Source: Prevotella sp.
Lineage (GTDB): Bacteria; Bacteroidota; Bacteroidia; Bacteroidales; Bacteroidaceae
DNA length: 41,790 bases
Direction: 5' to 3'
Assembly: GCA_017619275.1 (NCBI GenBank)
Contig: JAFZSR010000099.1
Coordinates: forward strand, 1 to 41,790
In this document: positions 7,071 through 35,546 of the stretch, one piece after another
Layout: each line of letters opens with the position of its first letter
How positions within the stretch are numbered: the first letter of the stretch is position 1
Notes under the pieces: generated by a model
What the model saw: the letters and a program-made list of their open reading frames with translations, nothing else
Databases searched by the model: none
What the model was told of the DNA's origin: nothing
Made by a program: the position numbers and the translations under genes

Positions 7071-7150
7071 AAAAAATCTCGTACGAGATTTTTTCAAAAG
7101 TCGTTACCATTTTTCAAAAAGTCGTTACCAAAATTTTCAATGGCAACGTC
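7071..7150. repeat. AT-rich CGTACG palindrome with 21-bp-spaced words, copy 1
   Basis: The palindrome A6-TCTCGTACGAGA-T6 occupies 7071-7094. Downstream, CGTTACC begins at 7102 and again at 7123, and CAACGTC at 7144, so the three words are exactly 21 bp apart. The words sit in runs of T and A (TTTTTCAAAAAG). The block lies between mazG and the lipoprotein gene, just before the promoter of the latter. The palindrome with its T run could act as a bidirectional terminator. Confidence 0.85.
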
Positions 7151-7175
7151 TACCCAAGAATAATTCCCAAACTGC

Positions 7176-7206
7176 TTGGCGGTTTGGGGATTTTTTCATA
7201 CCTTTG
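7176..7206 (+). promoter_or_regulatory. Bacteroidota promoter for the orphan lipoprotein
   Basis: TTG at 7176-7178, a 20-nt spacer, then TACCTTTG at 7199-7206. It leaves a leader of about 45 nt before the ATG at 7257. Confidence 0.7.
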
Positions 7207-7256
7207 CAAAGCCGTAAAGCTATGATACGATTGAACAACCAAAATTACGTAAGAAC

Positions 7257-7919
7257 ATGAAGCAATACACCTATACGCTCATTGCATTGGCCGCGTTATG
7301 GATGTCGGCCTGCGATATGCGGCAGCCTCTGAAGGTGGGCTATGAAGAACCGCGCGAATCACTGGAGAACGTCGATTCCACCATCTATGGATTCTGTGGC
7401 AGGGCCAGCACCGCGAAGCAGCTGCAGCTCATCACCGCCACCAACGACACATTATATATTAATGTGGAGGAGGCACGCACCCGTGGCCGCGTGCTTGGGG
7501 GCTATGCCACGGGCGACGAGCTGTATGTGCTGCCCGCTGCCGACCATGGCGTGGCGCAGCTGGTCATCAACAAAGCCGGGCTGCTGGGCGAGTGGGCCAT
7601 GCCCAGTCCCTACGATGGCAGCTCGCCTGCTGGCATCATCATCAAGGACGGCGGCGAGGCCGAGAGCTTGGAGCAGCAGGGCGACATCATCTACAAGTCG
7701 TGGCGCATCTTCAATGGTCAGATACAGATTGTGGAGACCCGCGACGACGGCACCGACATCGACTACATGCAGACCTACGACATCACGCGCATGACGCGCG
7801 ATTCGCTCTACTTGGTGAACTCCGAAGAGTCGTATGAGTATGGCAGATACAATCCCGCCATCGACGACCTTGGCGTGGAACTCGACTACGACTCGCAGGA
7901 AACCTTCGACTTGTTCTGA
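7257..7919 (+). CDS. Predicted lipoprotein of unknown function
   Basis: A 220-residue protein beginning MKQYTYTLIALAALWMSACD, a lipoprotein-type signal peptide with the likely lipidated Cys at residue 19. The mature part is acidic and mixed alpha/beta, with YGFCGRASTAKQLQLI, a DDGTDIDYMQTYDITR segment and a DYDSQETFDLF C-terminus. I do not recognise the family. It has its own promoter and is followed by a long hairpin, so it appears monocistronic. Likely role: an envelope-anchored protein. No catalytic motif is evident. Confidence 0.8.
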   Translation: MKQYTYTLIALAALWMSACDMRQPLKVGYEEPRESLENVDSTIYGFCGRASTAKQLQLITATNDTLYINVEEARTRGRVLGGYATGDELYVLPAADHGVAQLVINKAGLLGEWAMPSPYDGSSPAGIIIKDGGEAESLEQQGDIIYKSWRIFNGQIQIVETRDDGTDIDYMQTYDITRMTRDSLYLVNSEESYEYGRYNPAIDDLGVELDYDSQETFDLF

Positions 7920-7998
7920 TTTATATATGGAAAGAAATTTCGGGAAATTAGGATTAATTTCTGCTTCCGCTTGATGCTTAGTGAATTACAAAAACAAT

Positions 7999-8062
7999 GC
8001 GCAGCCCTTCCCCTCTTGACCCCTCCCCGTAAGGGCAGGGTTCAAGAGGGGAAGGGCTGCGC
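7999..8062. terminator. 64-nt hairpin between the lipoprotein gene and rnz
   Basis: A perfect 20-bp stem: 7999-8018 (GCGCAGCCCTTCCCCTCTTG) pairs with 8043-8062, with an inner C-rich/G-rich partial palindrome (CCCCTCCCCGTAAGGG). There is no T run after it, so a classical intrinsic terminator is uncertain. The inner core resembles the GC-rich palindromic elements at 25874 and 28494, so it may be a relative of that repeat family. Confidence 0.6.
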
Positions 8063-8105
8063 GATCAAAAGCGAAATAATTACAATCACTTAAACCCCAC
8101 TGGTA

Positions 8106-9023
8106 ATGGAACCCTTCCGACTGCATATTCTCGGCTGCGGAGCCGCGCTGCCCACCATCAAGCACTTCTCATCGATGCAGGTGGTGGAGTGCCGAGGCAA
8201 ACTATACATGATTGACTGTGGCGAAGGTGCGCAACTGCAGATGCGGCGCTCTTCCCTCTCGTTCGAGAAGCTGGGCCACATCTTCATCTCGCACCTGCAC
8301 GGCGACCACTGCTTCGGACTGATAGGACTCATCAGCACCTTCGGCCTCATGGGGCGCGTGGCCACGTTGCACATCCATGCGCCAGCCCAGCTGGAGCCGA
8401 TGCTAAAGGCCCAGCTCGACATGTTCTTCAACTACGACATCGGCTATGCCGTGGAGTTCCATCCCGTCGACACCCGTCAGCGTGCCGTGGTGTTCGAGGA
8501 CCGCTCCATCACCGTGGAGACCATCCCCCTCGACCACCGTATGCCGTGCGCTGGCTATCTCTTCCGCGAAAAGCCCTCGCTGCCCCATATCCGCCGCGAC
8601 ATGATCGACCTCTATGGCATCCCCATCTCGCAAATCAACAACATCAAGGCGGGGCAGGGCTTCACGCTGCCCGATGGCACTTGCATTGCGCATGAACGCT
8701 TGGTGACACCCGCCGATGCGCCACGCAGCTATGCCTACTGTTCCGACACGCGCTATATGCCCGACCTCTATAAGGAGGTGCAGGGCGTCAGCACCCTCTA
8801 CCATGAGAGCACCTACGCCGCCGACAAGTTGCAGAGTGCCCAGAAATACTATCACAGCACCGCCGAGCAGGCTGCCACCGTGGCGCACGATGCCGGCGTG
8901 GGCAAGCTGTTGCTGGGCCATTACAGCGCTCGCTATGCAGATGAGACGATTCTGCTTGATGAGGCCAAAAAAGTGTTTGAAAACAGCTTCCTGACCCACG
9001 AGATGGACATTTTCGACCTCTGA
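8106..9023 (+). CDS. rnz: Ribonuclease Z (tRNA 3' processing)
   Basis: A 305-residue metallo-beta-lactamase-fold endonuclease that trims tRNA precursor 3' ends. The Zn-binding motif HLHGDH lies at residues 63-68 (FISHLHGDHCFGL). The N-terminal GCGAALPTIKH and DCGEGAQLQMRR are also typical. Later ligands appear in IPLDHRMPCAGYLF, CSDTRYMPDL and LLLGHYSARYAD near the C-terminus. Length is normal for the short bacterial RNase Z. The start at 8106 gives the expected strand beginning FRLHILGCG. No clear promoter box precedes it, and the long hairpin at 7999-8062 separates it from the gene upstream. Confidence 0.95.
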   Translation: MEPFRLHILGCGAALPTIKHFSSMQVVECRGKLYMIDCGEGAQLQMRRSSLSFEKLGHIFISHLHGDHCFGLIGLISTFGLMGRVATLHIHAPAQLEPMLKAQLDMFFNYDIGYAVEFHPVDTRQRAVVFEDRSITVETIPLDHRMPCAGYLFREKPSLPHIRRDMIDLYGIPISQINNIKAGQGFTLPDGTCIAHERLVTPADAPRSYAYCSDTRYMPDLYKEVQGVSTLYHESTYAADKLQSAQKYYHSTAEQAATVAHDAGVGKLLLGHYSARYADETILLDEAKKVFENSFLTHEMDIFDL

Positions 9024-9045
9024 GTTGCATTTTTCGGCCAAAAAG

Positions 9046-9077
9046 TTTGGCAGAATTGAATTTTTTTGCTATTTTTG
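9046..9077 (+). promoter_or_regulatory. Bacteroidota promoter for the 9103-12554 gene group
   Basis: TTTG at 9046-9049, a 20-nt spacer, then TATTTTTG at 9070-9077, the best full match to the TTTG/TAnnTTTG consensus in the window. It begins only 22 nt after the rnz stop and lies 26 nt before the ATG at 9103. Confidence 0.72.
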
Positions 9078-9102
9078 CGCCGTAATTACAAAATATACAT
9101 GC

Positions 9103-9423
9103 ATGAATAGAAAACAAATTATTATAGCAGCATGCGCTGCGCTCATGACATTCTCCATGCCGGCTATGGCTGTGCCTATGGTGATGGAGATGGGTGTCGC
9201 CGAGCAGGTGGAGGAGCAGGCTCCCACCATCAGCATGGGCGACAACAACATGGTGAGCGTGCAGAATGCAGCTGGATTTACGCTCGAAGTGGTGTCGCTC
9301 ACCGGTCGTGCCGTGGCCAGCTACAAAATTGAGGGTCCTGCCCAGCGTATTGAACTTAATTTGCCGAAAGGGTGCTACATTCTGAAAGTTGGCAAGGTGG
9401 TGCGAAAGGTCACCGTGCGTTAA
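9103..9423 (+). CDS. Miniature secreted protein made almost only of a type IX sorting-like domain
   Basis: A 106-residue protein with signal peptide MNRKQIIIAACAALMTFSMPAMA. The mature part is only about 83 residues. Its last 50 residues, from FTLEVVSLTGRAVASYKI to LPKGCYILKVGKVVRKVTVR, have the beta-rich pattern of a type IX secretion C-terminal sorting domain: a Gly-Arg turn, then GCYIL, then a Lys-rich final strand. No cargo domain precedes it. The start at 9103 was chosen from the promoter and signal peptide; an in-frame upstream ATG at 9025 lies before the promoter. The L,D-transpeptidase gene begins inside its last 52 bp, so the two are probably coupled. Possible roles are a cell-surface adaptor or a remnant of a larger protein. 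Confidence 0.75.
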   Translation: MNRKQIIIAACAALMTFSMPAMAVPMVMEMGVAEQVEEQAPTISMGDNNMVSVQNAAGFTLEVVSLTGRAVASYKIEGPAQRIELNLPKGCYILKVGKVVRKVTVR

Positions 9424-10898
9424 TTGTCGTTGCAAGCGTCCTACTGGCACTTCACATTTCTGCCTGCACACATAACGGCTCCGACAACGTTGCTGACGAA
9501 GCTGCCCAGCGAAAGGAGCAGCTCTATCAGCAGCATTCGTTGGATGCCCAGCAGCATTTAGACATCCTTCTTTCCGATCAGAAAGATACACTTTATGCCG
9601 ACCGCATGGTACGTCGATACTACCATGAGGGCGGCGATTGGTGTTGGATGGGGCATCCCGAACAAATTGAAATGTGCGACGCCCTCGACAGTCTGCTGCG
9701 CAGCCAGGTGCCCGCCATGGGATTCAAGGACAGCGTGTTTGGGTTGGGCGACTACGACCAACAGCTCGCCGACATGCACCAGCCCGACTTGGTGGCCGAC
9801 ATGGCCATCGCCATGGCGCAGGTGGAGTGTAGTCTCACGCGAGCCTATTTGCGCTACGCCATCGGGCAGCGCTTTGGTTTCACCACGCCGTCGAAGCTCT
9901 TTGGCAAGCATCAATACGACATTGAGATTGAGCAAGCCGACAGCGCCTTTGTGGCCGATGCCATGAAGCAGCTGAAGGATAAAGCGACGATGCTGGCCTT
10001 CCTTAATTGCGCAGAACCGCAAGACTCGGCCTATCACGTGCTGAAGAAGCAGCTGACGAAGGACAGCACCGCCGAGGCACGCAACCGCACCCTGTGCAAC
10101 ATGGAGCGTCTGCGCTGGCGCGACAGCAAGCATGCCAAGCAGTCGCCCCGCCACATCTTTGTCAACATTGCATCGCAGCAGGTGTGGGCCATCGGTCCCG
10201 ACAGCGTGATTAACATGCGCATCTGCTGTGGAAAGGCTGCCACGAAGACGCCTCTGCTCTCCAGCGAGATACAGCGCATCGAGGTGAACCCCGAATGGGG
10301 GGTGCCACAAAGCATTATCCGAAACGAGATGAGCGGCCATGCCGGCGACTCCGCCTATTTCGCCCGTCGCAACTACTACGTGGTGGGCAGTGGCGGACAG
10401 CGGGTGAATCCGGCTCATCTGTCGAGTGCCGACCTGCGCAGCGGGCGGTATGCCGTCAGGCAGCGCAGTGGTGCCGGCAATTCGCTGGGGCGCATCATCT
10501 TCCGCTTCCCCAACAAGTTCTCGGTGTATCTGCACGACACCTCGTCGCCCAGTGCCTTCAATCGTGAGGTGCGCACGGTGTCGCATGGTTGCGTGCGTCT
10601 GCAGCGTCCCTTCGACATGGCCGAATTTGTGCTCCACGATGCCGACCCTTGGCTGCTCGACAAGATGCGCCTCTCGATGGACCTGCAGCCCAAGACGGAA
10701 CAGGGCAAGCAATACAAAAAGCAGCACAGCGGTGCCATACGCTTAGTGAACAATACGCCTGTGGAGCCAACGGTGCCCGTGCTCATTGACTATTATACCT
10801 GCTATCCCAATCCACAGACGGGAAAGCTCGACATCTGGGGCGACCCCTACGGCTACGATAAGATTTTGCTCAAGGCCATCCAGCCTTTCGTGAAGTAA
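9372..10898 (+). CDS. YkuD-type L,D-transpeptidase, predicted lipoprotein
   Basis: A 508-residue cell-wall cross-linking enzyme that would form 3-3 meso-DAP peptide bonds or attach proteins to peptidoglycan in the periplasm. The YkuD signature is clear: SVYLHDTSSPSAFNR and then VSHGCVRLQRP with the catalytic Cys at residue 407. The large N-terminal part resembles the long YcbB/LdtD class. The start is a GTG at 9372, inside the preceding gene; no ATG lies between it and the hydrophobic segment ALIVVASVLLALHISAC, whose Cys32 looks like a lipobox. It is followed after 26 bp by a sigma factor. The context suggests an envelope-maintenance operon. The start codon is the least certain part. Confidence 0.88.
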   Translation: MLHSESWQGGAKGHRALIVVASVLLALHISACTHNGSDNVADEAAQRKEQLYQQHSLDAQQHLDILLSDQKDTLYADRMVRRYYHEGGDWCWMGHPEQIEMCDALDSLLRSQVPAMGFKDSVFGLGDYDQQLADMHQPDLVADMAIAMAQVECSLTRAYLRYAIGQRFGFTTPSKLFGKHQYDIEIEQADSAFVADAMKQLKDKATMLAFLNCAEPQDSAYHVLKKQLTKDSTAEARNRTLCNMERLRWRDSKHAKQSPRHIFVNIASQQVWAIGPDSVINMRICCGKAATKTPLLSSEIQRIEVNPEWGVPQSIIRNEMSGHAGDSAYFARRNYYVVGSGGQRVNPAHLSSADLRSGRYAVRQRSGAGNSLGRIIFRFPNKFSVYLHDTSSPSAFNREVRTVSHGCVRLQRPFDMAEFVLHDADPWLLDKMRLSMDLQPKTEQGKQYKKQHSGAIRLVNNTPVEPTVPVLIDYYTCYPNPQTGKLDIWGDPYGYDKILLKAIQPFVK

Positions 10899-10924
10899 GG
10901 TTGGAGGCATCAGACGTTCAGGCT

Positions 10925-11476
10925 ATGACAACCTACGACGATCAGCAACTGAAAAACCTGCTTCAAGATCCTGCCACGCTGCGCAAGGGCTTCGAGGCCA
11001 TGGTGCGCCAATACAGTGAGCAGCTCTATTGGCAGGTGCGACGCATCGTCATCACACACGAGGATGCCAACGACGTGGTGCAGAATGCCCTGCTGAAGGC
11101 GTGGAGCTCGATAGGCACTTTCAAGGGCGAGTCGAAAATCTCTACCTGGCTCTCGCGAATTGCCATCAACGAGGCTGTCGATTTCACCCGCCGTCTGAAG
11201 AACCGCCCCACGCTGAGCACCGACGATGCCGACCTTGGACTGGCCAACCAGCTCATGGCCGATAAATACTTCGACGGCGACGAGACCGAGGCCATGCTGC
11301 AAGAGGCCATCGCCAGTCTGCCCGACGTGCAACGCACTGTGTTCCAGCTGCGCTACTACGATGAGATGAAATATAGTGAGATGAGCAAGGTGCTGGGAAC
11401 CTCGGAGGGAGGACTGAAAGCATCGTATCACATTGCCGTGAAAAAAATTACAGAATTTTTCCACAAACGAGATTAA
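10925..11476 (+). CDS. ECF-like sigma-70 family RNA polymerase sigma factor
   Basis: A 183-residue two-domain sigma factor. Region 2 spans about residues 25-95 and includes EDANDVVQNALLKAW and the promoter-melting/-10 stretch STWLSRIAINEAVDFTRR. Region 4 spans about 125-180 with LPDVQRTVFQLRYYDEMKYSEMSKVLGTSEGGLKAS, the helix-turn-helix that reads the -35 region. The ATG at 10925 was preferred over a TTG at 10901. It is followed by a single-pass membrane protein likely to be its anti-sigma factor, and then by a Spy-like periplasmic protein, the usual Bacteroidota arrangement. An upstream L,D-transpeptidase suggests an envelope signal. Target promoters cannot be inferred. Confidence 0.9.
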   Translation: MTTYDDQQLKNLLQDPATLRKGFEAMVRQYSEQLYWQVRRIVITHEDANDVVQNALLKAWSSIGTFKGESKISTWLSRIAINEAVDFTRRLKNRPTLSTDDADLGLANQLMADKYFDGDETEAMLQEAIASLPDVQRTVFQLRYYDEMKYSEMSKVLGTSEGGLKASYHIAVKKITEFFHKRD

Positions 11477-11523
11477 ACTTTACCAGCCGTTATACGTCAA
11501 TAAGACAAAACGAAAGCATAACT

Positions 11524-11910
11524 ATGATGAACGAGGAAGAATATCTTAGAAGTAAAATGGGAAAGCGGAATCCTTTCACCGTGCCCGAGGGCTACTTTGA
11601 GCAGCTCACACAGCAGGTGATGGCTCGCATCCCGGCCGAGGAGCAGGAGAAGAAGCCTGCAGCCAAGAAGGCCATTATCAGGCAGTTGCGCCCATGGCTC
11701 TATGCTGCCGCATGCGTCTGCGTGGGTGTCTTTACCGCCGGAGTGCTCTTCAGTAACAGCCAAAGCGACAACTCTAAGGAGCTGCAGCAAATGGCGTCGA
11801 TGGAGCAGGAAACCATCAACTACTACAGCGACAACTATATCGACGAGGAGGCCGACTACCTCATGCTCGACAACCAGGAGATATACGCTTGTCTGCTGGC
11901 CGACATGTAA
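11524..11910 (+). CDS. Single-pass membrane protein, putative anti-sigma factor
   Basis: A 128-residue protein with a cytoplasmic N-terminal part (MMNEEEYLRSKMGKRNPFTVPEGYFEQLTQQVMARIP), one hydrophobic segment at about 58-77 (LYAAACVCVGVFTAGVLF) and an acidic outer tail rich in Asp, Glu and Tyr. The opening NPFTVPEGYFEQL is common in Bacteroidota proteins encoded just after ECF-like sigma factors. This location and topology are the only grounds for calling it an anti-sigma factor; no zinc-binding HxxxCxxC motif is present. Either of the two adjacent ATGs could start it. Confidence 0.7.
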   Translation: MMNEEEYLRSKMGKRNPFTVPEGYFEQLTQQVMARIPAEEQEKKPAAKKAIIRQLRPWLYAAACVCVGVFTAGVLFSNSQSDNSKELQQMASMEQETINYYSDNYIDEEADYLMLDNQEIYACLLADM

Positions 11911-11933
11911 ACTGAAAAAAGCTAAGGAAGAGA

Positions 11934-12554
11934 ATGAAGAAGTTTTATCTCGCATTGGTGATGGCACTGTGTGCGCTGGGCATCCAGGCTCAATGGCAAG
12001 GATGGCCTCAGGGTGGACAGCAAGGAAGACCGCAAGGGCAGCAAGGAAGGCCCCAGGCAGGGCAGCAGGGAGCGCAGCAGCGCTTCTCGCCGGAGAAATT
12101 TGATGCCGATATGCAGGACTTTATCACCAAGGAAGCCAATCTGACACCGCAGGAAGCCTCTAAGTTCTTTCCTGTGTATAAGGAGATGCAGGAGAAGCAG
12201 CGTGTGCTCTTCATGCGCCAGAGCCAAGTGGCCAGGACGAAACCCGCCGATGAGCAGGGATGTCTGAAGGCAATCAAGGAGAGCGACGACATCGACCTGG
12301 AATTGAAAAATATCCAGAAAACGTATCACAAGCGTTTCCTCGACTTATTGCCCGCTTCAAAGGTGTATGACATTCTGCAGGCCGAACAGCGCTTCTATCG
12401 CCACACAATGCGAAGCTGGGGGCGCGGCAATGGCAACACCAATGGCAATGGCCGCCGGCAGCAGCAATTCCCTCGTTTCCCACAGTTCCCGCAATTCAAT
12501 CAAGGGCAGGGGAGTGGAATGCCACAAATGCCCCAAAGGCGAGGTCAGAACTGA
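11934..12554 (+). CDS. Spy/CpxP-like periplasmic protein with Gly/Gln-rich linkers
   Basis: A 206-residue exported protein (signal peptide MKKFYLALVMALCALGIQA). After it comes a low-complexity Gly/Gln/Pro stretch (GQQGRPQGQQGRPQAG), then a helical core of about 100 residues with DFITKEANLTPQEASKFFPVYKEMQ and YHKRFLDLLPASKVYDILQAEQRFYR. The LTPQEA and LPASKV words resemble the LTxxQ repeats of Spy/CpxP-type proteins. A second Asn/Gln/Phe/Pro-rich tail closes it (FPRFPQFPQFNQGQG). It ends overlapping the convergent DUF3256 gene by 10 bp. Likely a periplasmic chaperone or sensor working with the sigma/anti-sigma pair. Confidence 0.72.
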   Translation: MKKFYLALVMALCALGIQAQWQGWPQGGQQGRPQGQQGRPQAGQQGAQQRFSPEKFDADMQDFITKEANLTPQEASKFFPVYKEMQEKQRVLFMRQSQVARTKPADEQGCLKAIKESDDIDLELKNIQKTYHKRFLDLLPASKVYDILQAEQRFYRHTMRSWGRGNGNTNGNGRRQQQFPRFPQFPQFNQGQGSGMPQMPQRRGQN

Positions 12555-14941: not shown

Positions 14942-14958
14942 TTTCTGACTGTAGGTTT

Positions 14959-19342: not shown

Positions 19343-19440
19343 AAAAAATCTCGTACGAGATTTTTTCAAAAGTCGTTTACTTTTTTCAAAAAGTCGTTAC
19401 CAAAATTTCAAGAAGCGTTACCTGTTTTTTGGAGGGCGCC
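19343..19440. repeat. AT-rich CGTACG palindrome with 21-bp-spaced words, copy 2
   Basis: The palindrome A6-TCTCGTACGAGA-T6 occupies 19343-19366 and is identical to copies 1 and 4. The words CGTTTAC, CGTTACC and CGTTACC begin at 19374, 19395 and 19416, again 21 bp apart and at the same offset from the palindrome. A GGGCGCC word follows at 19434-19440. The block lies between the DUF4421 stop and the DUF1460 promoter. Confidence 0.85.
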
Positions 19441-25317: not shown

Positions 25318-26097
25318 TTATCTCACGGTGATGTGGAAGCAGGGCTGCCGCACCTCGTATTTGATATAGCAGCGTCCTTGCTGCCGCATGTCGCGCAGCA
25401 CCTCGCTGAGCACGTATTTCAGCTTGTCGTCGGTCGTTTTCTTGGAGGCCACGACGGGCGTGTACTGGTTGTAGTTGATGTCGAAGGTGGTGCCATAGAG
25501 GTGGCACGAGCGCTCGGTGGCGTTCTTGTTCGAGACCTGAAGCTTTTTCACGTCGGCTTCGGTACGCAGCACGCTGCTCACCACCATGCGGTGCAGTGGC
25601 AGCCCTTTCACTTGCAACGAGTCGAAGAACGCGCGGCCGATGTCCTCAAGCAGGATGGCGGCGCGGGGCACCAGATAGGGGATGCTGGCGTCGAGGTGGG
25701 CCATGGAGTAGTAGGGCGACATGGCCATGAACACCAGTTCGTCCTTACGCTGTTCGGCATCGTCGCGGTCGCGTACAGGCTTCACGCCCCACTGCTCGGC
25801 AGCAAGCAGTTGCACATGGTTGCTGTCGGGGAAGGTCTCGGCATAGCCGGGCACGCTCTTGATGGGGTGGGGCAACCCACCCCCCACCCCTCCCGTACGG
25901 GAGGGGGGGCTATATAGTTTTGCTGTAGCAAAAGTAACCAAGCTCCCCTCCCGCACGGGAGGGGCTGGGGGTGGGTTTTTGGGGGTGAGGCCGTTGCTTG
26001 GGGCAATGCCTGGGAAGATGCAGCGCACCAGCGCCAGCACCATCACCACCACGCCCAGCGTCTGCACATACCGATGCTTCAGTAGTTTCGTTGCCAT
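25318..26097 (-). CDS. DUF5715 family protein carrying an in-frame palindromic insert
   Basis: A 259-residue protein starting at MATKLLKHRYVQTLGVVVMVL, a membrane anchor or uncleaved signal. Residues from about 80 onward are the DUF5715 domain (HVQLLAAEQWGVKPV, YLVPRAAILLEDIGRAFFDSL, VVSSVLRTEADVKKLQ, SCHLYGTTFDINYNQY). The last word resembles the SxHxxGxAxD metal site of M15-type D-Ala-D-Ala peptidases, so a peptidoglycan role is possible but unproven. Residues about 40-75 (NPPPAPPVREGSLV and PPSRTGGVGGG) are not native; they are translated from an inverted pair of GC-rich repeats. The reading frame stays open through it. The start at 26097 is set by the promoter. Confidence 0.8.
   Translation of the reverse strand: MATKLLKHRYVQTLGVVVMVLALVRCIFPGIAPSNGLTPKNPPPAPPVREGSLVTFATAKLYSPPSRTGGVGGGLPHPIKSVPGYAETFPDSNHVQLLAAEQWGVKPVRDRDDAEQRKDELVFMAMSPYYSMAHLDASIPYLVPRAAILLEDIGRAFFDSLQVKGLPLHRMVVSSVLRTEADVKKLQVSNKNATERSCHLYGTTFDINYNQYTPVVASKKTTDDKLKYVLSEVLRDMRQQGRCYIKYEVRQPCFHITVR
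25874..25977. repeat. GC-rich palindromic element pair inside the DUF5715 gene
   Basis: Left arm 25874-25906 and right arm 25945-25977 are inverted copies with three mismatches in 33 positions and a 38-nt spacer. Each arm has a lead (AACCCACCCCC) and an inner palindrome (CCCCTCCCGTACGGGAGGGG in the left arm). The pair is translated in frame by the surrounding gene. Its arms match the half-element in the nuo operon. Confidence 0.9.
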
Positions 26098-26114: not shown

Positions 26115-26260
26115 CGAAGAAATTTTGAAATACACCACATTTCTTCTGAAAAAAGCCTTTTCGGCTTTCCCGTTTCACCTTTTTGGGGGGCTTATAGGTT
26201 TTGTATGAAGACAAAATCTTCGGGAAATGGCCTGTTTCAAGTATGCCATTTCGCGTCCGA

Positions 26261-26359
26261 AAAAAAGTCGTACGACTTTTTCAAAAAAAGCGTTGACTTT
26301 TTGAAAAATCTCAACGACTTTTTTCAAAAAGTCAACGCCAAATTTTTCCGCCCTGGCGC
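26261..26359. repeat. AT-rich CGTACG palindrome with 21-bp-spaced words, copy 3 (variant)
   Basis: The palindrome here is AAAAAGTCGTACGACTTTTT (26262-26281): both sides changed together compared with copies 1, 2 and 4. The words CGTTGAC, CAACGAC and CAACGCC begin at 26291, 26312 and 26333, again 21 bp apart at the same offset. In addition, 26290-26308 and 26320-26338 form a perfect 19-bp inverted repeat. The block fills most of the gap between DUF5715 and the short guaA; no gene is seen in 26115-26396. Confidence 0.85.
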
Positions 26360-26396: not shown

Positions 26397-27380
26397 TTAC
26401 TCCCACTCAATAGTGCCGGTTGGTTTCGGGGTGAGGTCGTAGAGTACACGATTCACGCCGGGCACCTCGGTGATGATGCGCTGGGTGATGTGGTGCAGGA
26501 GCGAGTATGGAATCTCCTCGATGGTAGCTGTCATGGCATCGCGTGTGTTCACGGCACGGATGATAACGGGCCAGTCCCAGCTGCGCTTGTTGTCCTTGAC
26601 GCCGGTGGACTTGTAGTCGGGCACGATGGTAAAGTACTGCCATACCTTGCCCTCCAAGCCGTTCTTGGCAAACTCCTCGCGAAGAATGGCATCCGACTCG
26701 CGCAAGGCCTCCAGACGATCGCGGGTGATAGCCCCCGTGCAACGAACACCCAGACCAGGACCTGGGAAGGGCTGACGGAACACCATGTTATCAGGCAGTC
26801 CGAGTTCCTTACCTACCACACGCACCTCATCCTTGAAGAGTAGTTTGATGGGCTCTACCAACTCGAATTGCAAGTCTTCGGGCAGACCGCCTACGTTGTG
26901 GTGTGACTTCACGGGACCAGACTCCACGATGTCGGGATAGATGGTACCCTGAGCCAAGAAGCTGATGCCTTCCTGCTTGCGGGCCTCTTCCTCGAATACA
27001 CGGATGAACTCAGCGCCGATAATCTTGCGTTTCTGCTCAGGGTCGGAGATGCCAGCGAGTTTGTCGAGGAAACGGTCGGTGGCATCAACATACACCAAAT
27101 TGGCATCCAGTTCATCGCGGAACACGCGTACCACCTGCTCGGGCTCGCCTTTGCGCAGCAGACCGTGATTCACATGAACAGACACCAGCTGCTTCCCCAC
27201 TGCCTTGATGAGGAGGGCTGCCACCACCGATGAGTCAACACCGCCGGATAGGGCCAGAAGTACCTTCTTGTCACCAATCTGAGCACGCAGCTCGCTGATC
27301 TGTTCTTCAATAAATTTCTGCGCCAGCGCGGGAGTTGTAATGCGCTCCATCGAGGCCGGACGTACGTTACCAGTTGTCAT
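26397..27380 (-). CDS. GMP synthase-like ATP-pyrophosphatase without glutaminase domain
   Basis: A 327-residue protein matching the C-terminal two-thirds of GuaA. The P-loop is SGGVDSSV at 45-52, followed by [53 protein letters not shown], and FRQPFPGPGLGVRCTGAIT; the dimerization domain closes with KPTGTIEWE. All adenylation motifs appear intact; only the class I glutamine amidotransferase domain is absent. It lies 43 bp downstream of a full-length guaA. It could be an ammonia-dependent GMP synthase, or borrow ammonia from a partner. It differs at many positions from its neighbour, so it is a diverged paralogue and not a recent copy. Confidence 0.9.
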   Translation of the reverse strand: MTTGNVRPASMERITTPALAQKFIEEQISELRAQIGDKKVLLALSGGVDSSVVAALLIKAVGKQLVSVHVNHGLLRKGEPEQVVRVFRDELDANLVYVDATDRFLDKLAGISDPEQKRKIIGAEFIRVFEEEARKQEGISFLAQGTIYPDIVESGPVKSHHNVGGLPEDLQFELVEPIKLLFKDEVRVVGKELGLPDNMVFRQPFPGPGLGVRCTGAITRDRLEALRESDAILREEFAKNGLEGKVWQYFTIVPDYKSTGVKDNKRSWDWPVIIRAVNTRDAMTATIEEIPYSLLHHITQRIITEVPGVNRVLYDLTPKPTGTIEWE

Positions 27381-27423: not shown

Positions 27424-29082
27424 TTACTCCCACTCGATGGTTGCTGGTGGCTTTGAGGAGATGTCGTAGCAGACGCGGTTGACGCCGCGCACCTTGTTGA
27501 TGATTTCGTTCGACACACGGGCCATGAAGTCGTAGGGCAGATGAGCCCAGTCGGCGGTCATGGCATCGGTGCTGGTGACGGCGCGCAGGGCCACGGGATG
27601 CTCATAGGTGCGCTCGTCGCCCATCACGCCCACGCTGCGAACGGCAGAGAGCAGGATGGCACCAGCCTGCCAAATCTTGTCGTAGAGCAGTTCGCCGTCG
27701 GGGCAGACATACTTGAGCATGCTGCTGATGTAAATATCGTCGGCATCCTGCAGGATGCGCACTTTCTCAGGGGTGATGTCGCCGAGGATGCGCACGGCCA
27801 GACCGGGGCCGGGGAAGGGATGGCGCTTGATAAGGCGCTCGGGCATCTGCAACTGATAGCCCACGCGGCGAACCTCATCCTTGAAAAGCCATTTCAGCGG
27901 TTCGCAGAGCTGCAGGTGCATCTCCTTGGGCAGACCGCCCACGTTGTGGTGGCTCTTGATAACCTTGCCCGTGATATTGAGACTCTCTATGCGGTCAGGG
28001 TAGATGGTGCCCTGGGCCAGCCATTTGGCATCGACAATCTTCTTTGCCTCGGCGTTGAACACCTCCACAAAGTCGCGGCCAATGATCTTGCGCTTCTGCT
28101 CGGGGTCGGTGACGCCAGCCAAATCGGCAAAGAACTTTTGCGAAGCATCCACGCCGATGACATTCAGTCCCAAGCCCTGATAGGCTTCCATCACCTGCTG
28201 GAACTCGTTCTTGCGCAGCATGCCGTGGTCGACGAAGATACAGGTGAGACGATTGCCGATGGCACGGTTGAGGAGCACGGCGCAGACGCTGGAGTCGACG
28301 CCGCCCGAGAGGCCGAGGATGACGCGGTCGTCGCCCAACTGTTCTTTCAGTTCGGCCACGGTGGTGTCGACAAACGAGGCGGCGCTCCACTCCTGACGAC
28401 TTCCGCAAATATCAACCACGAAATTCTTCAGCAGTTGCTTGCCTTGCAGGGTGTGGAACACTTCGGGATGGAACTGTACGGCGAAGATAGGAGCCTCACC
28501 CCCAACCCCTCTCCGATTGGAGAGGGGAGTGGATAGACTCTTTCCTTGTTGCTGCCGCATGGTGTATATACTCCCCTCTCCAATCGGAGAGGGGCCGGGG
28601 GTGAGGCTGAAGGCGGCGTATTTCACATCCTTCGTAGATGCAATGCAATGGAAGCCTTCGGGGATGGCGGTGATGGTGTCGCCGTGGCTCATCCACACCT
28701 GCGAGTTCTGTTCAAAGTCCTTGAAAAGCGGGCAGGTGGTGTCGACGGTTTCCAGATTGGCGCGGCCATACTCCCGGCTGTCGGCTTTCTCAACCTTGCC
28801 CCCCAAGGCGTGCGAGATGAATTGCGCTCCGTAGCAGATGCCCAAGACGGGTACCTTGCCTACGAATTGGGCGAGGTCGACCTTAAAAGCTTCCGGGTCG
28901 TGGACGGAGTAGGGCGAACCGCTCAGGATGACGCCGATGATGGAACCCGACTGCAAATCTGCCTCAACGGTGTGAAACTTGTTGTAGGGCAGGATTTCGC
29001 AGAAGGTGTCGAGTTCGCGCAAGCGGCGGCCAATGAGCTGGGTGGTCTGCGAACCGAAGTCGAGGATGATGATTTTCTGCAT
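27424..29082 (-). CDS. guaA: GMP synthase (glutamine-hydrolysing) with in-frame repeat insert
   Basis: A 552-residue enzyme that aminates XMP to GMP. The glutaminase half has nucleophile C83 ([12 protein letters not shown]) and the H205/E207 pair (AVQFHPEVF). The ATP-pyrophosphatase half starts near residue 240 with [10 protein letters not shown], then [25 protein letters not shown] and a C-terminal KPPATIEWE. Residues about 159-196 ([12 protein letters not shown] through [13 protein letters not shown]) are foreign to the family and correspond exactly to an inverted pair of GC-rich repeats at 28494-28606. The insert lies between KDVKYAAF and [11 protein letters not shown], a few residues before the catalytic His, apparently in a surface loop. 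The start at [12 protein letters not shown] is typical. It is about 38 residues longer than usual only because of this insert. Confidence 0.95.
28494..28606. repeat. GC-rich palindromic element pair inside guaA
   Basis: Arms 28494-28530 and 28570-28606 are inverted copies identical at 35 of 37 positions, with a 39-nt spacer. Each has a lead CCTCACCCCC and an inner palindrome (CCCCTCTCC-GATT-GGAGAGGGG). The insert length keeps the frame open, adding about 38 codons to guaA. Confidence 0.93.
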
Positions 29083-29089
29083 ATCTATG

Positions 29090-29200
29090 CCCCCTAAGTT
29101 AGGGGGATGGGGGTCTGAACAGACGTTACCAGACTTTTTATTATTGATTACTACAGGGATTCTGCGCCTGTTCAGACCCCCTGCCCCCTAACTTAGGGGG
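29090..29200. repeat. GC-rich palindromic element pair between the nucleotidyltransferase gene and guaA
   Basis: Arms 29090-29122 and 29168-29200 are inverted copies identical at 31 of 33 positions, with a 45-nt spacer. Here the palindromes (CCCCCTAA-C-TTAGGGGG type) are outermost and the leads (GGGGTCTGAACAG) innermost, the reverse of the pairs inside genes. The left palindrome ends 8 nt before the guaA ATG. The right one contains the stop codon of the nucleotidyltransferase gene. Confidence 0.9.
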
Positions 29201-31039: not shown

Positions 31040-31049
31040 TCGATGCAGT

Positions 31050-32216
31050 CTATTTGAAGGTGATGGTATGGGGCTTGTTGGAGCTTGGCTTATCGTTGCG
31101 TGGCCGGTGCTCTTCTTTGCCGGTGACGAGGGTGCTGTTGCGCGAGTTCTTGCGAACATAGCCGGTGATGATGTCGTTGAAGCGCTCGGCCTGCTCGTCC
31201 TGCATGAACTGAATGTCCACGGGCAGCACGTAGAGATGTTGGCGCACCTCGTCGGAGAGGCCTTCGGCCAGCAGCAGTCTTGTCACGTCTTTCTCGGTGG
31301 TGACGATGAGCTTGTCCTTGGCTGACATTTGCGCAAAGGTGTCGTTGATTTGTTGCACATCGCGGCGGCTAAAGTCGTGGTGGTCGGCAAAAGCCATGGG
31401 GGTGATGTTGCTGGTATAAGGAGCCAGGTCTTCCTGCAGCTGTCGGGGCGAGGCAATGCCGGTGAGCAACAGCACGGGGCGGTCTTTCAGGTCGTTGAGT
31501 GCGATGTCGTCGGCTTGGGCGAAGACAGGGTGCAGGTCGGCATAGTGCAGCGTGGTGAAGAACAGGTGCTGGTAGGGATAGAGGTTCATGGCCTTGGTAA
31601 TGACGCGAAACTCCATGGGCTTCAAGCTCTTGGGACACTTCGTCACAATCACGATGTCGGCCCTGTTCTTGCTCTTCACCGTCTCGCGCAGCCGGCCGGC
31701 GGGCAACAGCTTGTCGTAGATGATGAGTCGGTGATAGTCGACCAGCAAAATGTTGATGCCAGGCTTTACATAGCGGTGCTGGAAGGCATCGTCGAGCAGC
31801 ACCACGTCGAGCTGCTCATCGTTGTCGGTGAGCTGTTGGATGCCGCGCACGCGTTTCTTGTCGACGGCCACGCTGATGTCGGGAAACTTGCGCTTCATCT
31901 GCAAGGGTTCGTCGCCGATGTCATTCACAGTGCTGTTGTTGGTGGCCAGCAGGTAGCCACTGGTCTTGCGCTTGTAGCCCCTGCTGAGCACGGCCACGTG
32001 GAACTTTTGGCGCAGCAGTCGCACCAAGTATTCCACATGTGGCGTCTTGCCCGTTCCGCCCACAGTGATGTTTCCCACTGCGATGACGGGCACGCTGAAG
32101 GCTTGGCTTTTCAGCAGCCCTACATCGAAGCAGAAATTCCTCATGCCCACGGCGGCTCCATAGAGCCAGCTCAGGGGCAGGAGTGATTCCTTTATTTTGA
32201 TATAGTCGCCTTCCAT
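31050..32216 (-). CDS. lpxK: Tetraacyldisaccharide 4'-kinase
   Basis: A 388-residue inner-membrane-associated kinase that phosphorylates the lipid A precursor at the 4' position. The N-terminal amphipathic part LLPLSWLYGAAVGMRNFCFD is followed by the P-loop GNITVGGTGKTP (48-59), then LSRGYKRKTSGYLLA, DIGDEPLQMKRKFP and VVLLDDAFQHRYVKPGINIL, all diagnostic of LpxK. It lies 14 bp downstream of sppA and 10 bp before thiL. The C-terminal 40 residues (RNSRNSTLVTGKEEHRPRNDKPS) are a basic tail, longer than usual. Confidence 0.95.
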   Translation of the reverse strand: MEGDYIKIKESLLPLSWLYGAAVGMRNFCFDVGLLKSQAFSVPVIAVGNITVGGTGKTPHVEYLVRLLRQKFHVAVLSRGYKRKTSGYLLATNNSTVNDIGDEPLQMKRKFPDISVAVDKKRVRGIQQLTDNDEQLDVVLLDDAFQHRYVKPGINILLVDYHRLIIYDKLLPAGRLRETVKSKNRADIVIVTKCPKSLKPMEFRVITKAMNLYPYQHLFFTTLHYADLHPVFAQADDIALNDLKDRPVLLLTGIASPRQLQEDLAPYTSNITPMAFADHHDFSRRDVQQINDTFAQMSAKDKLIVTTEKDVTRLLLAEGLSDEVRQHLYVLPVDIQFMQDEQAERFNDIITGYVRKNSRNSTLVTGKEEHRPRNDKPSSNKPHTITFK

Positions 32217-32231
32217 GCTTTTATCGTTTCC

Positions 32232-34028
32232 TTATTGAATCTCCACCGAGAAGGGCAAGCGGGCCTGCAGACGGTTGCGCACTTGGTCTTGGCGCAGCTG
32301 CATGATGGGCTCGTAGAGGTCGCCCAAAGCCTGGCGCAGCTGGGTGTCGAGATAGCTGTCGGTGCGCTTCTCTTTGTTGAAGAGCTGCTCTATCCAACTG
32401 GTTTTGGCAGGATAGGCGGTGGAGTGATATTCTGTGAGATTGGCCAGCTCGGCGGCTTTCTTCACTGCGTCGTCGAGCGAGCCCAGCTGGTCCACCAGCT
32501 TGATGCCCAGGGCGTCGGTGGCCAACCACACGCGGCCCTGTGCAATCTCGTTCACCTGGTCGCGGGTCATGCCGCGCCCATCGGCCACGATGTCGAGGAA
32601 GTTAACGTATCCACGGTCGGTGTAGCCTTGCAGATAGCGCATCTCGTCGCTATTGTCCGAGCCAAAGATCAGGTTGGTCTCATAATCGGAGTATTTGTTG
32701 GTGGTGACGCCGTCCCAGGTGACGCCCAGCTTGTCGGTCACCAGCCCGCTGAAGTTGGGGATAAGTCCGAAGATGCCAATGCTGCCGGTGATGGTGGTAG
32801 GCTCGGCCACGATGTAGTTGGCGCCACAACTGATCATATAGCCTCCCGATGCGGCCAAGCCGCCCATCGACACCACCACGGGCTTCTTCAGCTTCAGCTG
32901 CTGTATGGCGTGCCATATCTGCTCAGAGGCTATGGCGCTGCCGCCGCCGCTGTTCACGCGCAGCACCACGGCCTTCACGTCGTCGTCCTCAGCCAGCTTC
33001 GTCAGGTCGTTAGCAGTGGTGCTGCCCACGATGTTGTGGCCGGTGGAGAGTCCGCTCACCAGTTCGTCGACAATCTCGCCATAGGCATAGTACACGGCCA
33101 CCTCGTCGCCCTTTTCCCTGACGCGCTTGGCGGGCTTCAGGTTGAGCATGTCGTCGAGCGACAGCTGGTTGATGTTGTCGTCATCGCCGATGCCCAGCTG
33201 GCGGCGCACCACCTGCTTCATCTGCTCGGGATAGAAGACGCGGTCGATAAGACCGGCCTTTAGGTAGTCGTCGACGGTGGCGAAGAGCATGATGCTGTCG
33301 TTGGCCAGCGCGTCCAGACGCTCGGCGCTCAGCTTGCGGCTGTCGGCCATCTGCTGTGTCCACTGCCCCCAGATGCCCTTCATGTAGGCCTCGCGCTGTT
33401 CGCGGTCCTCGGCGCTCATGTCCTTGCGGGTGACGCTCTCCACGTAACTCTTGTATTTGCCCACGCGGGCGGCCTGGTATTTCACGCCCAGCTTCTCGTA
33501 GAGGCCGGTGAGGTAGTAGCCCTTGGCGCCCATGCCCTTGAAGTCGATCATTCCCGTCTTGTTCAGGAAGAGCGAGTCGGCCACCGAGCTAATGTAGTAC
33601 GAGGCCTGCATCATCTCGTCGGCGTAGGCAAAGACCCACTTTCCGCTTTTCTTGAAGTCTTGCAGGGCGTTGCGTATCTGCTGGGCCGTGGCGGGCGAGT
33701 CGAAGGTGGCGGCGCCGCCCTCGATGTAGATGCCTTTGATGTTCTCCTCGTCGCGTGCCAAGCGTATGGCTTTCAGGATGTCGTCGAGGCCCAAGGCGTC
33801 CACGCCTGCCGTGCTGATGAGTGCAGCCAGCGGACCGGCATCGTCGGCGCGCTCGCTCACCGTTCCGTTCAGCTTCAGCACGAACACCGAGTTCTCGGCG
33901 GCCTTCACCTTAGAGTCGCCGCCCGACAGCATTCCCATGAAGGTGAGGGCTCCTAGCAGGAAGGCGATGATGGTCAATACGATGATGCCACATATCGTGG
34001 CCAGCATGTACTTGAAAAAGTCTTTCAT
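32232..34028 (-). CDS. sppA: Signal peptide peptidase SppA, 67-kDa type
   Basis: A 598-residue membrane serine protease that digests cleaved signal peptides. An N-terminal anchor (YMLATICGIIVLTIIAFLLGALTF) is followed by two tandem ClpP-like domains. The general-base Lys is K191 in ARVGKYKSYVESVTRKDMS, and the nucleophile Ser is S394 in GGLAASGGYMISCGANYIVA; both match the E. coli enzyme pattern of a split active site. The word LRVNSGGGSAIASEQIW precedes it (canonical VNSPGGS has Pro here). The start at 34028 was chosen because a -33/-7 promoter lies just upstream, ruling out the longer reading to 34103. It heads the lpxK-thiL-guaA gene run. Confidence 0.93.
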   Translation of the reverse strand: MKDFFKYMLATICGIIVLTIIAFLLGALTFMGMLSGGDSKVKAAENSVFVLKLNGTVSERADDAGPLAALISTAGVDALGLDDILKAIRLARDEENIKGIYIEGGAATFDSPATAQQIRNALQDFKKSGKWVFAYADEMMQASYYISSVADSLFLNKTGMIDFKGMGAKGYYLTGLYEKLGVKYQAARVGKYKSYVESVTRKDMSAEDREQREAYMKGIWGQWTQQMADSRKLSAERLDALANDSIMLFATVDDYLKAGLIDRVFYPEQMKQVVRRQLGIGDDDNINQLSLDDMLNLKPAKRVREKGDEVAVYYAYGEIVDELVSGLSTGHNIVGSTTANDLTKLAEDDDVKAVVLRVNSGGGSAIASEQIWHAIQQLKLKKPVVVSMGGLAASGGYMISCGANYIVAEPTTITGSIGIFGLIPNFSGLVTDKLGVTWDGVTTNKYSDYETNLIFGSDNSDEMRYLQGYTDRGYVNFLDIVADGRGMTRDQVNEIAQGRVWLATDALGIKLVDQLGSLDDAVKKAAELANLTEYHSTAYPAKTSWIEQLFNKEKRTDSYLDTQLRQALGDLYEPIMQLRQDQVRNRLQARLPFSVEIQ

Positions 34029-34064
34029 ATCCAGTTGAAATTTGTTGATGGTTGTTTTGGTTGG

Positions 34065-34095
34065 CAAAGTTACACATTTTATGCGAACTGACCAA
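34065..34095 (-). promoter_or_regulatory. Bacteroidota promoter for sppA
   Basis: On the minus strand, TTG at 34095-34093, a 20-nt spacer and TAACTTTG at 34072-34065. It lies 37 nt before the ATG at 34028 and may drive the whole sppA to guaA run, since no other -7 box was seen in the gaps of that run. Confidence 0.65.
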
Positions 34096-34117
34096 AAATG
34101 CAAGCCTAATTTTTGTT

Positions 34118-35278
34118 TCAGTTCACTCTCACCACGACCTGCGTAGGAAACATATACGCTGGGTCGCCACGCTCAGCGAGGGTGTTTCGCAGCGTCGAGG
34201 CATGGCGTTTCGCTTTTCCTTTGAAGAGCGTTCTTCCTTGATGTACAATCTTTACCGGCTTGTCGAGGTCGGCCATCTCATCGTTGAGGCCGATGGTGAG
34301 TTCCGTATAGTCGCAGCGCAGGATGTTGATGGTGTTGCCCTGCAACTCGGCCCGCACCTCCTTGCCTCTGGCCAGTTCTTCCTTGGGGGCGGTAAGCCAG
34401 TAGAAGTGTTGGTGCAGTTCCTCTTCCTGTCGCCAAACAATCTTGGTGGGGTAGGGGTTGCGTTCATGACGGGCCATCCACTCCACGGCTGCGGCATCTT
34501 CCAAGTCCATCCAATGGCCTTTCCCTTTCACGATGTGGCCTTCGAAGATGTAGCCGTCGGCATCGGCGCGATGCAGGGAGTCCATCTCGTTGATGCGCTC
34601 CTGGCATCGCTTGTTGCGGTCGTAGGCGGCATCCTGCTCGCCGCACCAAATCATGAATGGCGTGTTGCGCAGGTTCAGCAGTGACACGTCGCCCGGGTGG
34701 CCAGCCATCATCGATGCTGCAGCCCACGTGTCGGCCATTCGCGGGGCCATTCGCCACACGGCGTCGCCTCCAGCCGAATAGCCCATGAGGTACACTTTGT
34801 TGGGGTTGACGTTGAAGCAAGCCACTGCCATCTGGATGATGCGCCTGTAGAAGTCGTCAATCCCGCCAATGAAATGCATGTTCCATGCGTCGACGGGTGC
34901 TCTTGGGCACAGATACACGCTGTTGGCGGGATGGTAGAGCCGCCACTGGTTCTGCCATTGGCTGTCGTTCAGCGCTTTCGGCGCGCCGCCACCGCCGTGC
35001 AGCGAGATGAAGAGTGCACGGCCGTCGGCGGGTTCGTCGCCTATCAACTCCGAGTGCAGGGGCATGGTCAGCGTGTCGATTTGCAGCCTTTGGGAGGCCA
35101 GCGTCTCGGCAAAGGCCGTGCGCAGGGAGTCCTTCCAGGCTTCCTTCAGCATGGCGGCCATCTGCTGGGACGCTTGCGCCGACAGCGCACGCTCACTTTT
35201 GTCTTTGGCATAGATGCCCGTCGGCATCACCAGCAGTATTACTGCCAGCCACCATCGAAATATCATATTGAACTTCAT
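34118..35278 (-). CDS. Exported alpha/beta-hydrolase (esterase-like)
   Basis: A 386-residue protein with signal peptide MKFNMIFRWWLAVILLVMPTGIYA. An oxyanion-type HGGGG is at 94-98 and the nucleophile elbow GYSAGGD is at 167-172 (S168). The likely acid is in WCGEQDAAYDRN and the His in VKGKGHWMD, completing a triad order typical of feruloyl- or polyhydroxybutyrate-depolymerase-like esterases. The C-terminal 100 residues (TKIVWRQEEELHQHFYWL) form an extra beta-rich domain. The substrate is unknown. The start at 35278 fits the signal peptide. It appears monocistronic and is followed by the sppA promoter. Confidence 0.82.
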   Translation of the reverse strand: MKFNMIFRWWLAVILLVMPTGIYAKDKSERALSAQASQQMAAMLKEAWKDSLRTAFAETLASQRLQIDTLTMPLHSELIGDEPADGRALFISLHGGGGAPKALNDSQWQNQWRLYHPANSVYLCPRAPVDAWNMHFIGGIDDFYRRIIQMAVACFNVNPNKVYLMGYSAGGDAVWRMAPRMADTWAAASMMAGHPGDVSLLNLRNTPFMIWCGEQDAAYDRNKRCQERINEMDSLHRADADGYIFEGHIVKGKGHWMDLEDAAAVEWMARHERNPYPTKIVWRQEEELHQHFYWLTAPKEELARGKEVRAELQGNTINILRCDYTELTIGLNDEMADLDKPVKIVHQGRTLFKGKAKRHASTLRNTLAERGDPAYMFPTQVVVRVN

Positions 35279-35363
35279 GTTGGAAGATATAATCATATAG
35301 GTTGTACAAGTTAGTGTGCCCATTTATTGAACAACAAATGCCGCGCTTCCTACTTGGCGCCTG

Positions 35364-35371
35364 CAAAATTA
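35364..35371 (-). promoter_or_regulatory. -7 box (TAATTTTG) for the alpha/beta-hydrolase gene
   Basis: TAATTTTG on the minus strand, 86-93 nt before the ATG at 35278. No matching -33 was found. The 465-nt gap 35279-35743 otherwise holds repeat copy 4, a LacI-like palindrome and the amylase -7 box. Confidence 0.5.
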
Positions 35372-35460
35372 TGAAGAAAATAATTATTTCGCGTACACTC
35401 CCGACTAAACTATGTTAAATGCGCTCGTTTTAGGAAACAGCAATGGCTGTTTTTCAGCCG

Positions 35461-35546
35461 GGTAACGCCCTTCAAAATTTCGGTAACGACTTTTTTAAAA
35501 AAGGTAACGCTTTTTTAAAAAATCTCGTACGAGATTTTTTGGGCGC
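35461..35546. repeat. AT-rich CGTACG palindrome with 21-bp-spaced words, copy 4 (inverted orientation)
   Basis: GGTAACG begins at 35461, 35482 and 35503, exactly 21 bp apart, and the palindrome A6-TCTCGTACGAGA-T6 follows at 35517-35540, then GGGCGCC. Read on the minus strand this is the same order and the same spacing as copies 1 to 3. The block lies between the hydrolase and amylase promoters. Confidence 0.87.

What the first reader, a model, noticed from the sequence alone, without database searches (positions are those of the whole stretch)
7071..35546. Four intergenic copies of an AT-rich palindrome followed by three words at an exact 21-bp period
Copies at 7071-7150, 19343-19440, 26261-26359 and 35461-35546 (the last inverted) share the same geometry. 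A palindrome centred on CGTACG is flanked by A and T runs. At +19.5 bp from its centre a 7-nt word starts, and two more follow at exactly 21-bp steps: 7102/7123/7144, 19374/19395/19416, 26291/26312/26333, and on the minus strand from 35509/35488/35467. The words are mostly CGTTACC or a CAACG variant, separated by T/A tracts. Exact two-helical-turn phasing kept in all four copies, while the words vary, suggests DNA-protein recognition on one face of the helix or intrinsic bending, beyond a simple terminator. I know of no named element with this layout. Four copies in 42 kb imply many in the genome.
Basis: seen in the sequence. Interest (0 to 1): 0.72.

Follow-up and report, generated by a model that had tools for sequence, protein, structure and literature searches.

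The report
Two-turn phased word arrays in Prevotella
This bacterial genome, and several related species, carry many short non-coding DNA arrays whose spacing of about two DNA-helix turns stays fixed while their words differ from species to species, which looks like a docking site for an unidentified protein.

Summary
The four copies belong to a family with 148 aligned copies (about 146 arrays) in the 3.59-Mb genome; 102 are closely alike over about 66 bp. They are intergenic, indifferent to gene direction, and show no target duplications or arm complementarity. Each unit is a GC-richer word between an A-run and a T-run, repeated every 21-22 bp. Outside the array, A/T content is phased to it with a period of 11.25 bp on both sides for about 90 bp (88 copies with dissimilar flanks); a relative, RUG13587, shows maxima at similar distances. 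Other Prevotella genomes carry the same geometry with different words. At three sites with both flanks kept, words were replaced in place or one 22-bp unit differs. Array intervals also coincide with gene-order breaks (17 of 24 broken, against 1 of 11 array-free gaps). In a sample of the order outside the genus no genome was comparably enriched. Best reading: docking sites for a sequence-specific protein, with phased arms wrapped around the complex, comparable to BIME or strong gyrase sites. The protein is unknown. A dispersing repeat is the main rival.

The parts
7071..7136 (+). Copy 1 core: palindromic unit TCTCGTACGAGA (7077-7088) plus word units GTCGTTACC (7100-7108, 7121-7129) separated by A/T tracts
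7142..7150 (+). Copy 1 third, degenerate word (GGCAACGTC) at the 21-bp step
19343..19408 (+). Copy 2 core: palindromic unit plus words GTCGTTTAC (19372-19380) and GTCGTTACC (19393-19401)
19414..19422 (+). Copy 2 third word (AGCGTTACC)
26260..26346 (+). Copy 3, non-canonical array of four units: GTCGTACGAC (26267-26276), GCGTTGAC (26290-26297), TCTCAACGAC (26309-26318), GTCAACGCC (26331-26339). The matching place in G083 holds an array with other words; left flank syntenic, right flank not
35475..35540 (-). Copy 4 core, inverted: palindromic unit plus words AGCGTTACC (35503-35511) and GTCGTTACC (35482-35490), between divergent genes
35461..35469 (-). Copy 4 third word (GGCGTTACC)

Best explanation
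The arrays are chromosomal docking sites for a sequence-specific, probably dimeric DNA-binding protein. Each unit (A-run, 8-12 nt word, T-run) is one site; units two helical turns apart put several bound dimers on one face of the DNA. The A/T-phased arms (period 11.25 bp, about 90 bp on each side) are wrapped or bent around the complex, giving a particle of roughly 250 bp, in the manner of gyrase-bound or BIME-type sites. SHOWN: copy number, geometry, intergenic and orientation-blind placement, phased symmetric arms, species-specific words, replacement of words and of a whole unit in place, coincidence with gene-order breaks. INFERRED: that a protein binds, that it is dimeric, that the arms wrap, that word change follows change of the protein, and any role in nucleoid or supercoil organisation.
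For: 148 unique aligned copies among 150 listed places. Conserved -12..+54, weaker outer words at -24..-13 and 55-67. Arms phased: left -120..-26 and right 72..166, best period 11.25, 0 of 500 null maxima reach it, on the 88 of 102 copies left after removing similar flanks (first seen). The maxima are made of both A and T, which speaks against shared ancestry. In G083 (20 arrays) the profile from the outermost word has maxima near 33, 46, 57, 68, 80 and 90, as in G000. Same geometry with other words in other species. At C82:30219 (flanks 86-89% identical, both sides) unit number and spacing stay and words change. At C87:5908 the palindrome reads GGCGTACGCC in one species and GGAGCGCTCC in the other: both halves changed together. 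Words are more dyad-symmetric than shuffles in G000 and in the mixed other species (0 of 200 each). No gene-direction preference, GC-skew polarity (53 of 102) or common neighbour family. Analogy: E. coli gyrase sites show a centre with two 47-bp arms periodic at 10.75 bp, and BIME-2 arrays are enriched for them (PMC6379681, passages).
Against: No protein found. Many words, including the commonest GTCGTTACC, are not dyad-symmetric; G116 words are no more symmetric than shuffles (136 of 200) and G083 only marginally (11 of 200). The core is not intrinsically curved in the wedge sum. 102 closely alike copies in one species, and 2 exact palindromes found in its relative, suggest spread by copying, which a binding-site model alone does not explain. 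The formal period test for G083 peaks at 18.5 bp (z 5.2) with 12.5 bp behind it (z 4.5), and in 62 arrays of other species at about 20.5 bp, so the 11-bp arm period is firmly shown only in G000. Some G083 arrays lie at the same sites as G000 arrays and are not independent.
Confidence: 0.4

Rival explanations
1. A non-autonomous dispersing repeat (REP- or MITE-like). Copies are spread by an unidentified enzyme that likes bent intergenic DNA, and arrays grow by unit duplication. The phased arms are target preference, not function.
For: 102 closely alike copies in G000; the exact palindrome was found in two places of RUG13587 and in none of 59 relatives by pattern. 4 of 7 gene pairs kept in both species have no array in G083 (for three; for C40:48369). 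27 of 148 copies lie within 700 bp of a contig end, 7.3 expected.
Against: No target-site duplication (best excess 6 observed, 2.1 expected). No arm complementarity. No clean empty site found. Arrays at shared places in two species keep geometry and exchange words. No match of copy 1 in plasmids or phages; the 15 viral-contig hits of the palindrome pattern showed no array in the 155 bases printed.
Confidence: 0.34
2. Functionless minisatellites: slippage and gene conversion homogenise A/T-rich 21-22 bp units; geometry persists only because units duplicate whole.
For: One 22-bp unit differs between species at C83:3357; in the listed matches of G323 and G402 arrays of one genome carry different, internally uniform words; long uniform arrays such as L269 and L275.
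Against: Does not explain arms phased at 11.25 bp outside the units on both sides in G000, nor the same words at about 100 dispersed sites.
Confidence: 0.16
3. Intrinsic (bidirectional) transcription terminators.
For: The first unit is a hairpin between an A-run and a T-run; the fold alignment of 19 copies keeps 9 pairs, 2 of them with a both-sided change in one copy.
Against: 31 of 120 copies between divergent genes; tandem/divergent/convergent 63/31/26 match gaps of 150 bp or more in the same loci, 84/45/33. Units 1-2 are not in the consensus fold.
Confidence: 0.05
4. Species labels for DNA uptake or recombination, like the DUS dialects of Neisseriaceae.
For: Different vocabularies in different species; gene-order breaks at arrays.
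Against: Arrays, not single short words; about 150 per genome instead of thousands; several vocabularies inside G323 and G402; no competence data.
Confidence: 0.05

Closest known systems
BrickBuilt MITE/minisatellite of Porphyromonas gingivalis (PMC4596501; outline with abstract and passages read)
   Same: Same order as far as recalled (Bacteroidales); intergenic multi-copy element built of a short tandem unit; species-restricted
   Different: 23-nt unit, 19 copies in strain ATCC 33277, leader and tail with small inverted-repeat ends and target duplications reported in three of four intact copies; here 21-22 bp, about 146 arrays, no duplications seen, A/T-phased arms, words that change between species
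REP/BIME-2 arrays of E. coli and the gyrase motif (PMC6379681; passages read)
   Same: Intergenic palindromic units repeated at many sites; gyrase motif is symmetric, with arms of helical GC/AT period
   Different: Gyrase motif spans 130 bp with 10.75-bp period; here arms of about 90 bp on each side of a 66-105 bp array, period 11.25; binding untested; REP sequence features (recalled) were not looked for
DUS dialects of Neisseriaceae (PMC3630211; outline with abstract read)
   Same: Species-specific versions of an abundant repeated word
   Different: Short words in thousands of copies used for transformation; here phased arrays in intergenic DNA
Iteron and parS arrays of plasmids and chromosomes (recalled)
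   Same: Direct sites about 21-22 bp apart on one face of the helix
   Different: Those sit at one or a few loci beside their protein gene; here about 146 dispersed arrays with varied neighbours

Membership tests
MITE / BrickBuilt | Target-site duplication | tested here: not met
   Scan of flank pairs in 102 copies, best excess 6 observed against 2.1 expected
MITE / BrickBuilt | Terminal inverted repeats | tested here: inconclusive
   Arm complementarity not above shuffled partners; only weak inverted outer words in the consensus
MITE / BrickBuilt | 23-nt tandem unit | tested here: not met
   Spacing mostly 20-23 bp, mode 21 or 22 by data set; 23 nt from PMC4596501
MITE / BrickBuilt | Intergenic, non-coding, many copies | tested here: met
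   5 of 148 overlap called ORFs, all low-scoring
REP/BIME | Multi-copy intergenic palindromic units | tested here: met
   only the first unit is strictly palindromic in the canonical copies
REP/BIME | Associated RAYT transposase | not tested
   Not searched
Strong gyrase site | Symmetric arms with helical A/T phasing | tested here: met
   G000: period 11.25 both sides, 0 of 500; maxima symmetric about word 1
Strong gyrase site | Motif of about 130 bp | tested here: not met
   Signal spans roughly 250 bp
Strong gyrase site | Bound or cut by gyrase | not testable with these tools
   Needs Topo-Seq or a binding assay
CRISPR array | Identical repeats separated by unique spacers (recalled definition) | tested here: not met
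   Units adjoin through A/T tracts and joins of a few nt in the printed arrays
Intrinsic terminator | Placed at gene 3' ends, avoided between divergent genes | tested here: not met
   31 of 120 divergent
Iteron / parS | Beside a replication or partition gene | tested here: not met
   120 of 259 listed neighbour proteins were scanned: 202 Pfam families, the commonest in 4 members
Rfam RNA family | Match to a known structured RNA | tested here: not met
   0 matches at gathering score in the window
DUS/USS | Promotes DNA uptake | not testable with these tools
   Needs a transformation assay

The most novel reading that the evidence does not exclude
A genus-wide class of chromosomal nucleoprotein sites in Prevotella in which only the physical grammar (A-run, word, T-run every two helical turns, phased arms) is inherited, while the vocabulary is rewritten in place by co-evolution with a fast-changing DNA-binding protein: a bacterial counterpart of satellite and centromere-protein turnover that also marks chromosome rearrangement points.
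Probability: 0.2. Interest if true: 0.92.

Novelty: new variant of a known kind. Interest (0 to 1): 0.72.

Why it matters
If the arrays dock a protein, they open the question of how nucleoids are organised in Bacteroidales and offer a natural experiment: several species with one geometry and different words, so the protein could be found by matching its variation to the words. Even as inert repeats they are a frequent feature, not found described in the papers searched, of an abundant genus, and they coincide with gene-order breaks.

Tried and rejected
Flank hairpin: by eye, left and right flanks of several copies looked complementary (note); against shuffled partners there was no excess, so dropped. 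RNA element: no Rfam match in the window; only the first unit is in the consensus fold, though single window copies fold better than shuffles as DNA, copy 3 most (z -6.0). Intrinsic bending of the core: wedge sum below shuffles. Terminator: gene context. Mobile element with duplications: none; no plasmid or phage match; viral hits without arrays. Replication-strand marker: no GC-skew polarity. Protein partner through neighbours: none. Coding repeat (7 codons): 22-bp spacing is common and the sites are intergenic. My automatic unit counter (a column) missed arrays that are plainly there in G083, for example at C82:30219, so array presence was judged from printed sequences and, for C40:48369, a consensus and unit scan. 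Papers: the searches listed no description of these arrays; the library lacks most subscription journals. PMC5771137 was seen in passages only.
Full report
Observation. The four window copies are present at the stated places with the stated 21-bp steps. Aligned with 15 further copies they share an almost invariant core. Position 0 below is the palindrome centre, reading in the direction of the words.

Abundance. In the window's genome (G000, 3,590,703 bases, 127 contigs, 85% complete) the palindrome with A/T arms has 99 exact matches and 124 with up to one mismatch, against 0 for the reversed pattern. A sequence-only model (R1) gives 156 matches at E<=0.1, with 150 of 1118 candidates scored; 150 places were listed. 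All 150 were fetched or lie in the window; 148 remain after removing duplicates. Two arrays appear once on each strand (C24 and C42), so there are about 146 arrays. 102 copies match at least 56 of the 67 consensus bases; the profile, target-duplication and arm work uses these 102, and 46 were left out.

Anatomy. Information is high from -12 to +54: the palindromic unit and words 1 and 2. It is weaker for word 3 (55-67) and for an outer word on the other side (-24 to -13). Words sit at centres 0, 21, 42 and 63. Canonical word 1 varies (GTCGTTACC, GTCGTTAAC, GTCGTTGAC, GTCAACGAC and others), while A- and T-runs hold. Other varieties in the same genome are symmetric three-unit arrays with inverted outer units, for example at C24:64735 (that output was cut in the middle).

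Phased arms. A/T content outside the array oscillates in register with it: maxima near -33, -46, -58, -70, -80, -91 and near +75, +86, +98, +111, +121, +133, symmetric about word 1 (102 copies). After removing copies with similar flanks (88 of 102 kept), both sides peak at 11.25 bp, z 12.5 and 11.6, and in 0 of 500 shifted controls does the maximum over periods 9-13.75 reach the observed amplitude. Further out the signal is weak: in the next 100-bp windows the best z is 3.2 (left, 11.5 bp, 3 of 300) and 1.9 (right). Decayed units would give a 21-bp period, which is not what is seen in G000. In G083, measured from the outermost word, maxima lie near 33, 46, 57, 68, 80 and 90, close to those of G000, but the formal test peaks at 18.5 bp (z 5.2) with 12.5 bp at z 4.5 (20 arrays, 0 of 300 each). 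In 62 arrays of other species the strongest period is about 20.5, as it would be if the detector misses outer units. So the 11-bp arms are firm in G000, suggested in G083, and not shown elsewhere.

What it is not. Gene context: of 148 copies, 120 have a called gene on both sides (63 tandem, 31 divergent, 26 convergent), 5 overlap low-scoring ORFs, and 23 lack a called neighbour on a side; gaps of 150 bp or more in the same loci, array gaps included, give 84, 45 and 33 (own dicodon gene caller). No target duplication, no arm complementarity, no GC-skew polarity (53 of 102 positive). No Rfam match in the window. Neighbouring proteins are diverse: 120 of 259 listed were scanned. Beside the window copies lie MazG, a lipocalin-like protein, an AmiA-like amidase, a DUF4421 protein, a Fumble-domain protein, a GMP synthase C-terminal domain protein, a protein without a Pfam match and an amylase-domain protein.

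Other genomes. The exact palindrome pattern is in none of 59 relatives; among named genomes only uncultured Prevotellaceae RUG13587 has it, in two places (records very near the window's genome may be left out of that scan). R1 over 398 genomes of the genus finds 19 with a match at E<=0.001, own included, with 10 candidates scored per genome. Rescored with up to 150 candidates at E<=0.01, five of these have 125 (G083), 166 (G116), 100 (G274), 26 (G268) and 16 (G403) matches; symmetric units can match on both strands, so these are not array counts. Their words differ: GTCAACGCC is commonest in the stretches of G083 and G274, GTCAACGAGA and GTCAACGAG in G116, GCGGCCCGC and CCAGCCCAC in G268.

A word-free pattern of two tandem units, AAAA-gap-TTTT-4-AAAA-gap-TTTT, was compared with its reversal. 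In 398 genus genomes 24 have at least 30 matches and at least five times the control, for example G268 175 against 2, G000 174 against 8, G116 124 against 0, G003 115 against 2; G274 does not pass (38 against 45) (tallied by eye from the table). By the same rule only G000 passes among 247 genomes of the order; G046 has 21 against 1, below the count limit. The 24 are an upper limit: of 14 loci that brought from 14 such genomes (L263-L276, taken to be one each; the answer names the genome of two), about 8 show word arrays by eye and the others mainly A/T runs. A stricter three-unit pattern at 21 bp has matches in 58 of 398 genomes, some of them simple repeats; G174 and G360 match only its control. 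In the listed matches of G323 and G402 different arrays of one genome carry different, internally uniform and often palindromic words.

Same place, other words. Gene adjacency between G000 and 776,967 bp of G083 was kept at 7 of 24 array intervals, 10 of 11 array-free gaps of 100 bp or more (Fisher p 0.0009) and 15 of 19 shorter gaps. Pairs with a gene under 240 bp, and unmatched pairs near stretch ends, were dropped; the first 20 stretches had been chosen around R1 matches; array intervals are longer on average, so part of the effect may be gap length. Of the 7 kept, 3 have arrays in both species. C82:30219: same unit number and spacing, words replaced, flanks 86-89% identical. C83:3357: the alignment has one 22-bp gap in G083, the CGTACG unit, and other words differ. 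C87:5908: palindrome GGCGTACGCC against GGAGCGCTCC. The other 4 have no array in G083 and no clean empty site (for three; for C40:48369). With one syntenic flank, window copy 3 keeps an array with other words, and C100:135 and C82:58361 keep the same words; C29:44773 and C95:26510 have arrays near the matching flank, but their alignments are poor. 27 of 148 copies lie within 700 bp of a contig end, 7.3 expected, which fits local strain variation but also longer repeats nearby.

Interpretation. Fixed spacing with free words, symmetric phased arms, blind placement and in-place word exchange are what sites of a multi-dimer nucleoprotein complex would leave behind, and the arms resemble the gyrase motif, which has 10.75-bp periodic arms (PMC6379681, passages). 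The large, uniform family in G000, with two exact palindromes found in G083, argues for copying, so a dispersing repeat is a strong rival; both can be true. No protein was found and nothing here shows binding.

Noticed in passing
window 748-795, 7999-8062, 25873-25977, 28492-28608: A second interspersed family: GC-rich inverted repeats of the CCCCTCCC/GGGAGGGG type. In several genome copies (C15:134, C77:45936, C85:68600, C106:24688) a CGCAGCC(A/C)CTCCCCTCC stretch directly adjoins the right end of an array.
   Followed up: no
L197-L208 (G116): In 10 of the 12 G116 loci printed, the array is followed by an inverted repeat of the type ATGAGACATATAGAAAAGTC ... GACTTTTCTATATGTCTCAT, and most are preceded by GTGCTACC-like repeats, as if arrays were part of a larger composite element.
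   Followed up: no
window 26397-27380 and 27424-29082: Two adjacent genes share diverged segments (72-75%); the shorter has the GMP synthase C-terminal domain. The longer was not scanned.
   Followed up: no
   Followed up: no
G000 contig ends: 27 of 148 copies lie within 700 bp of a contig end against 7.3 expected; five of them have the end 145-185 bp upstream of the palindrome, which may mark strain-variable junctions.
   Followed up: partly
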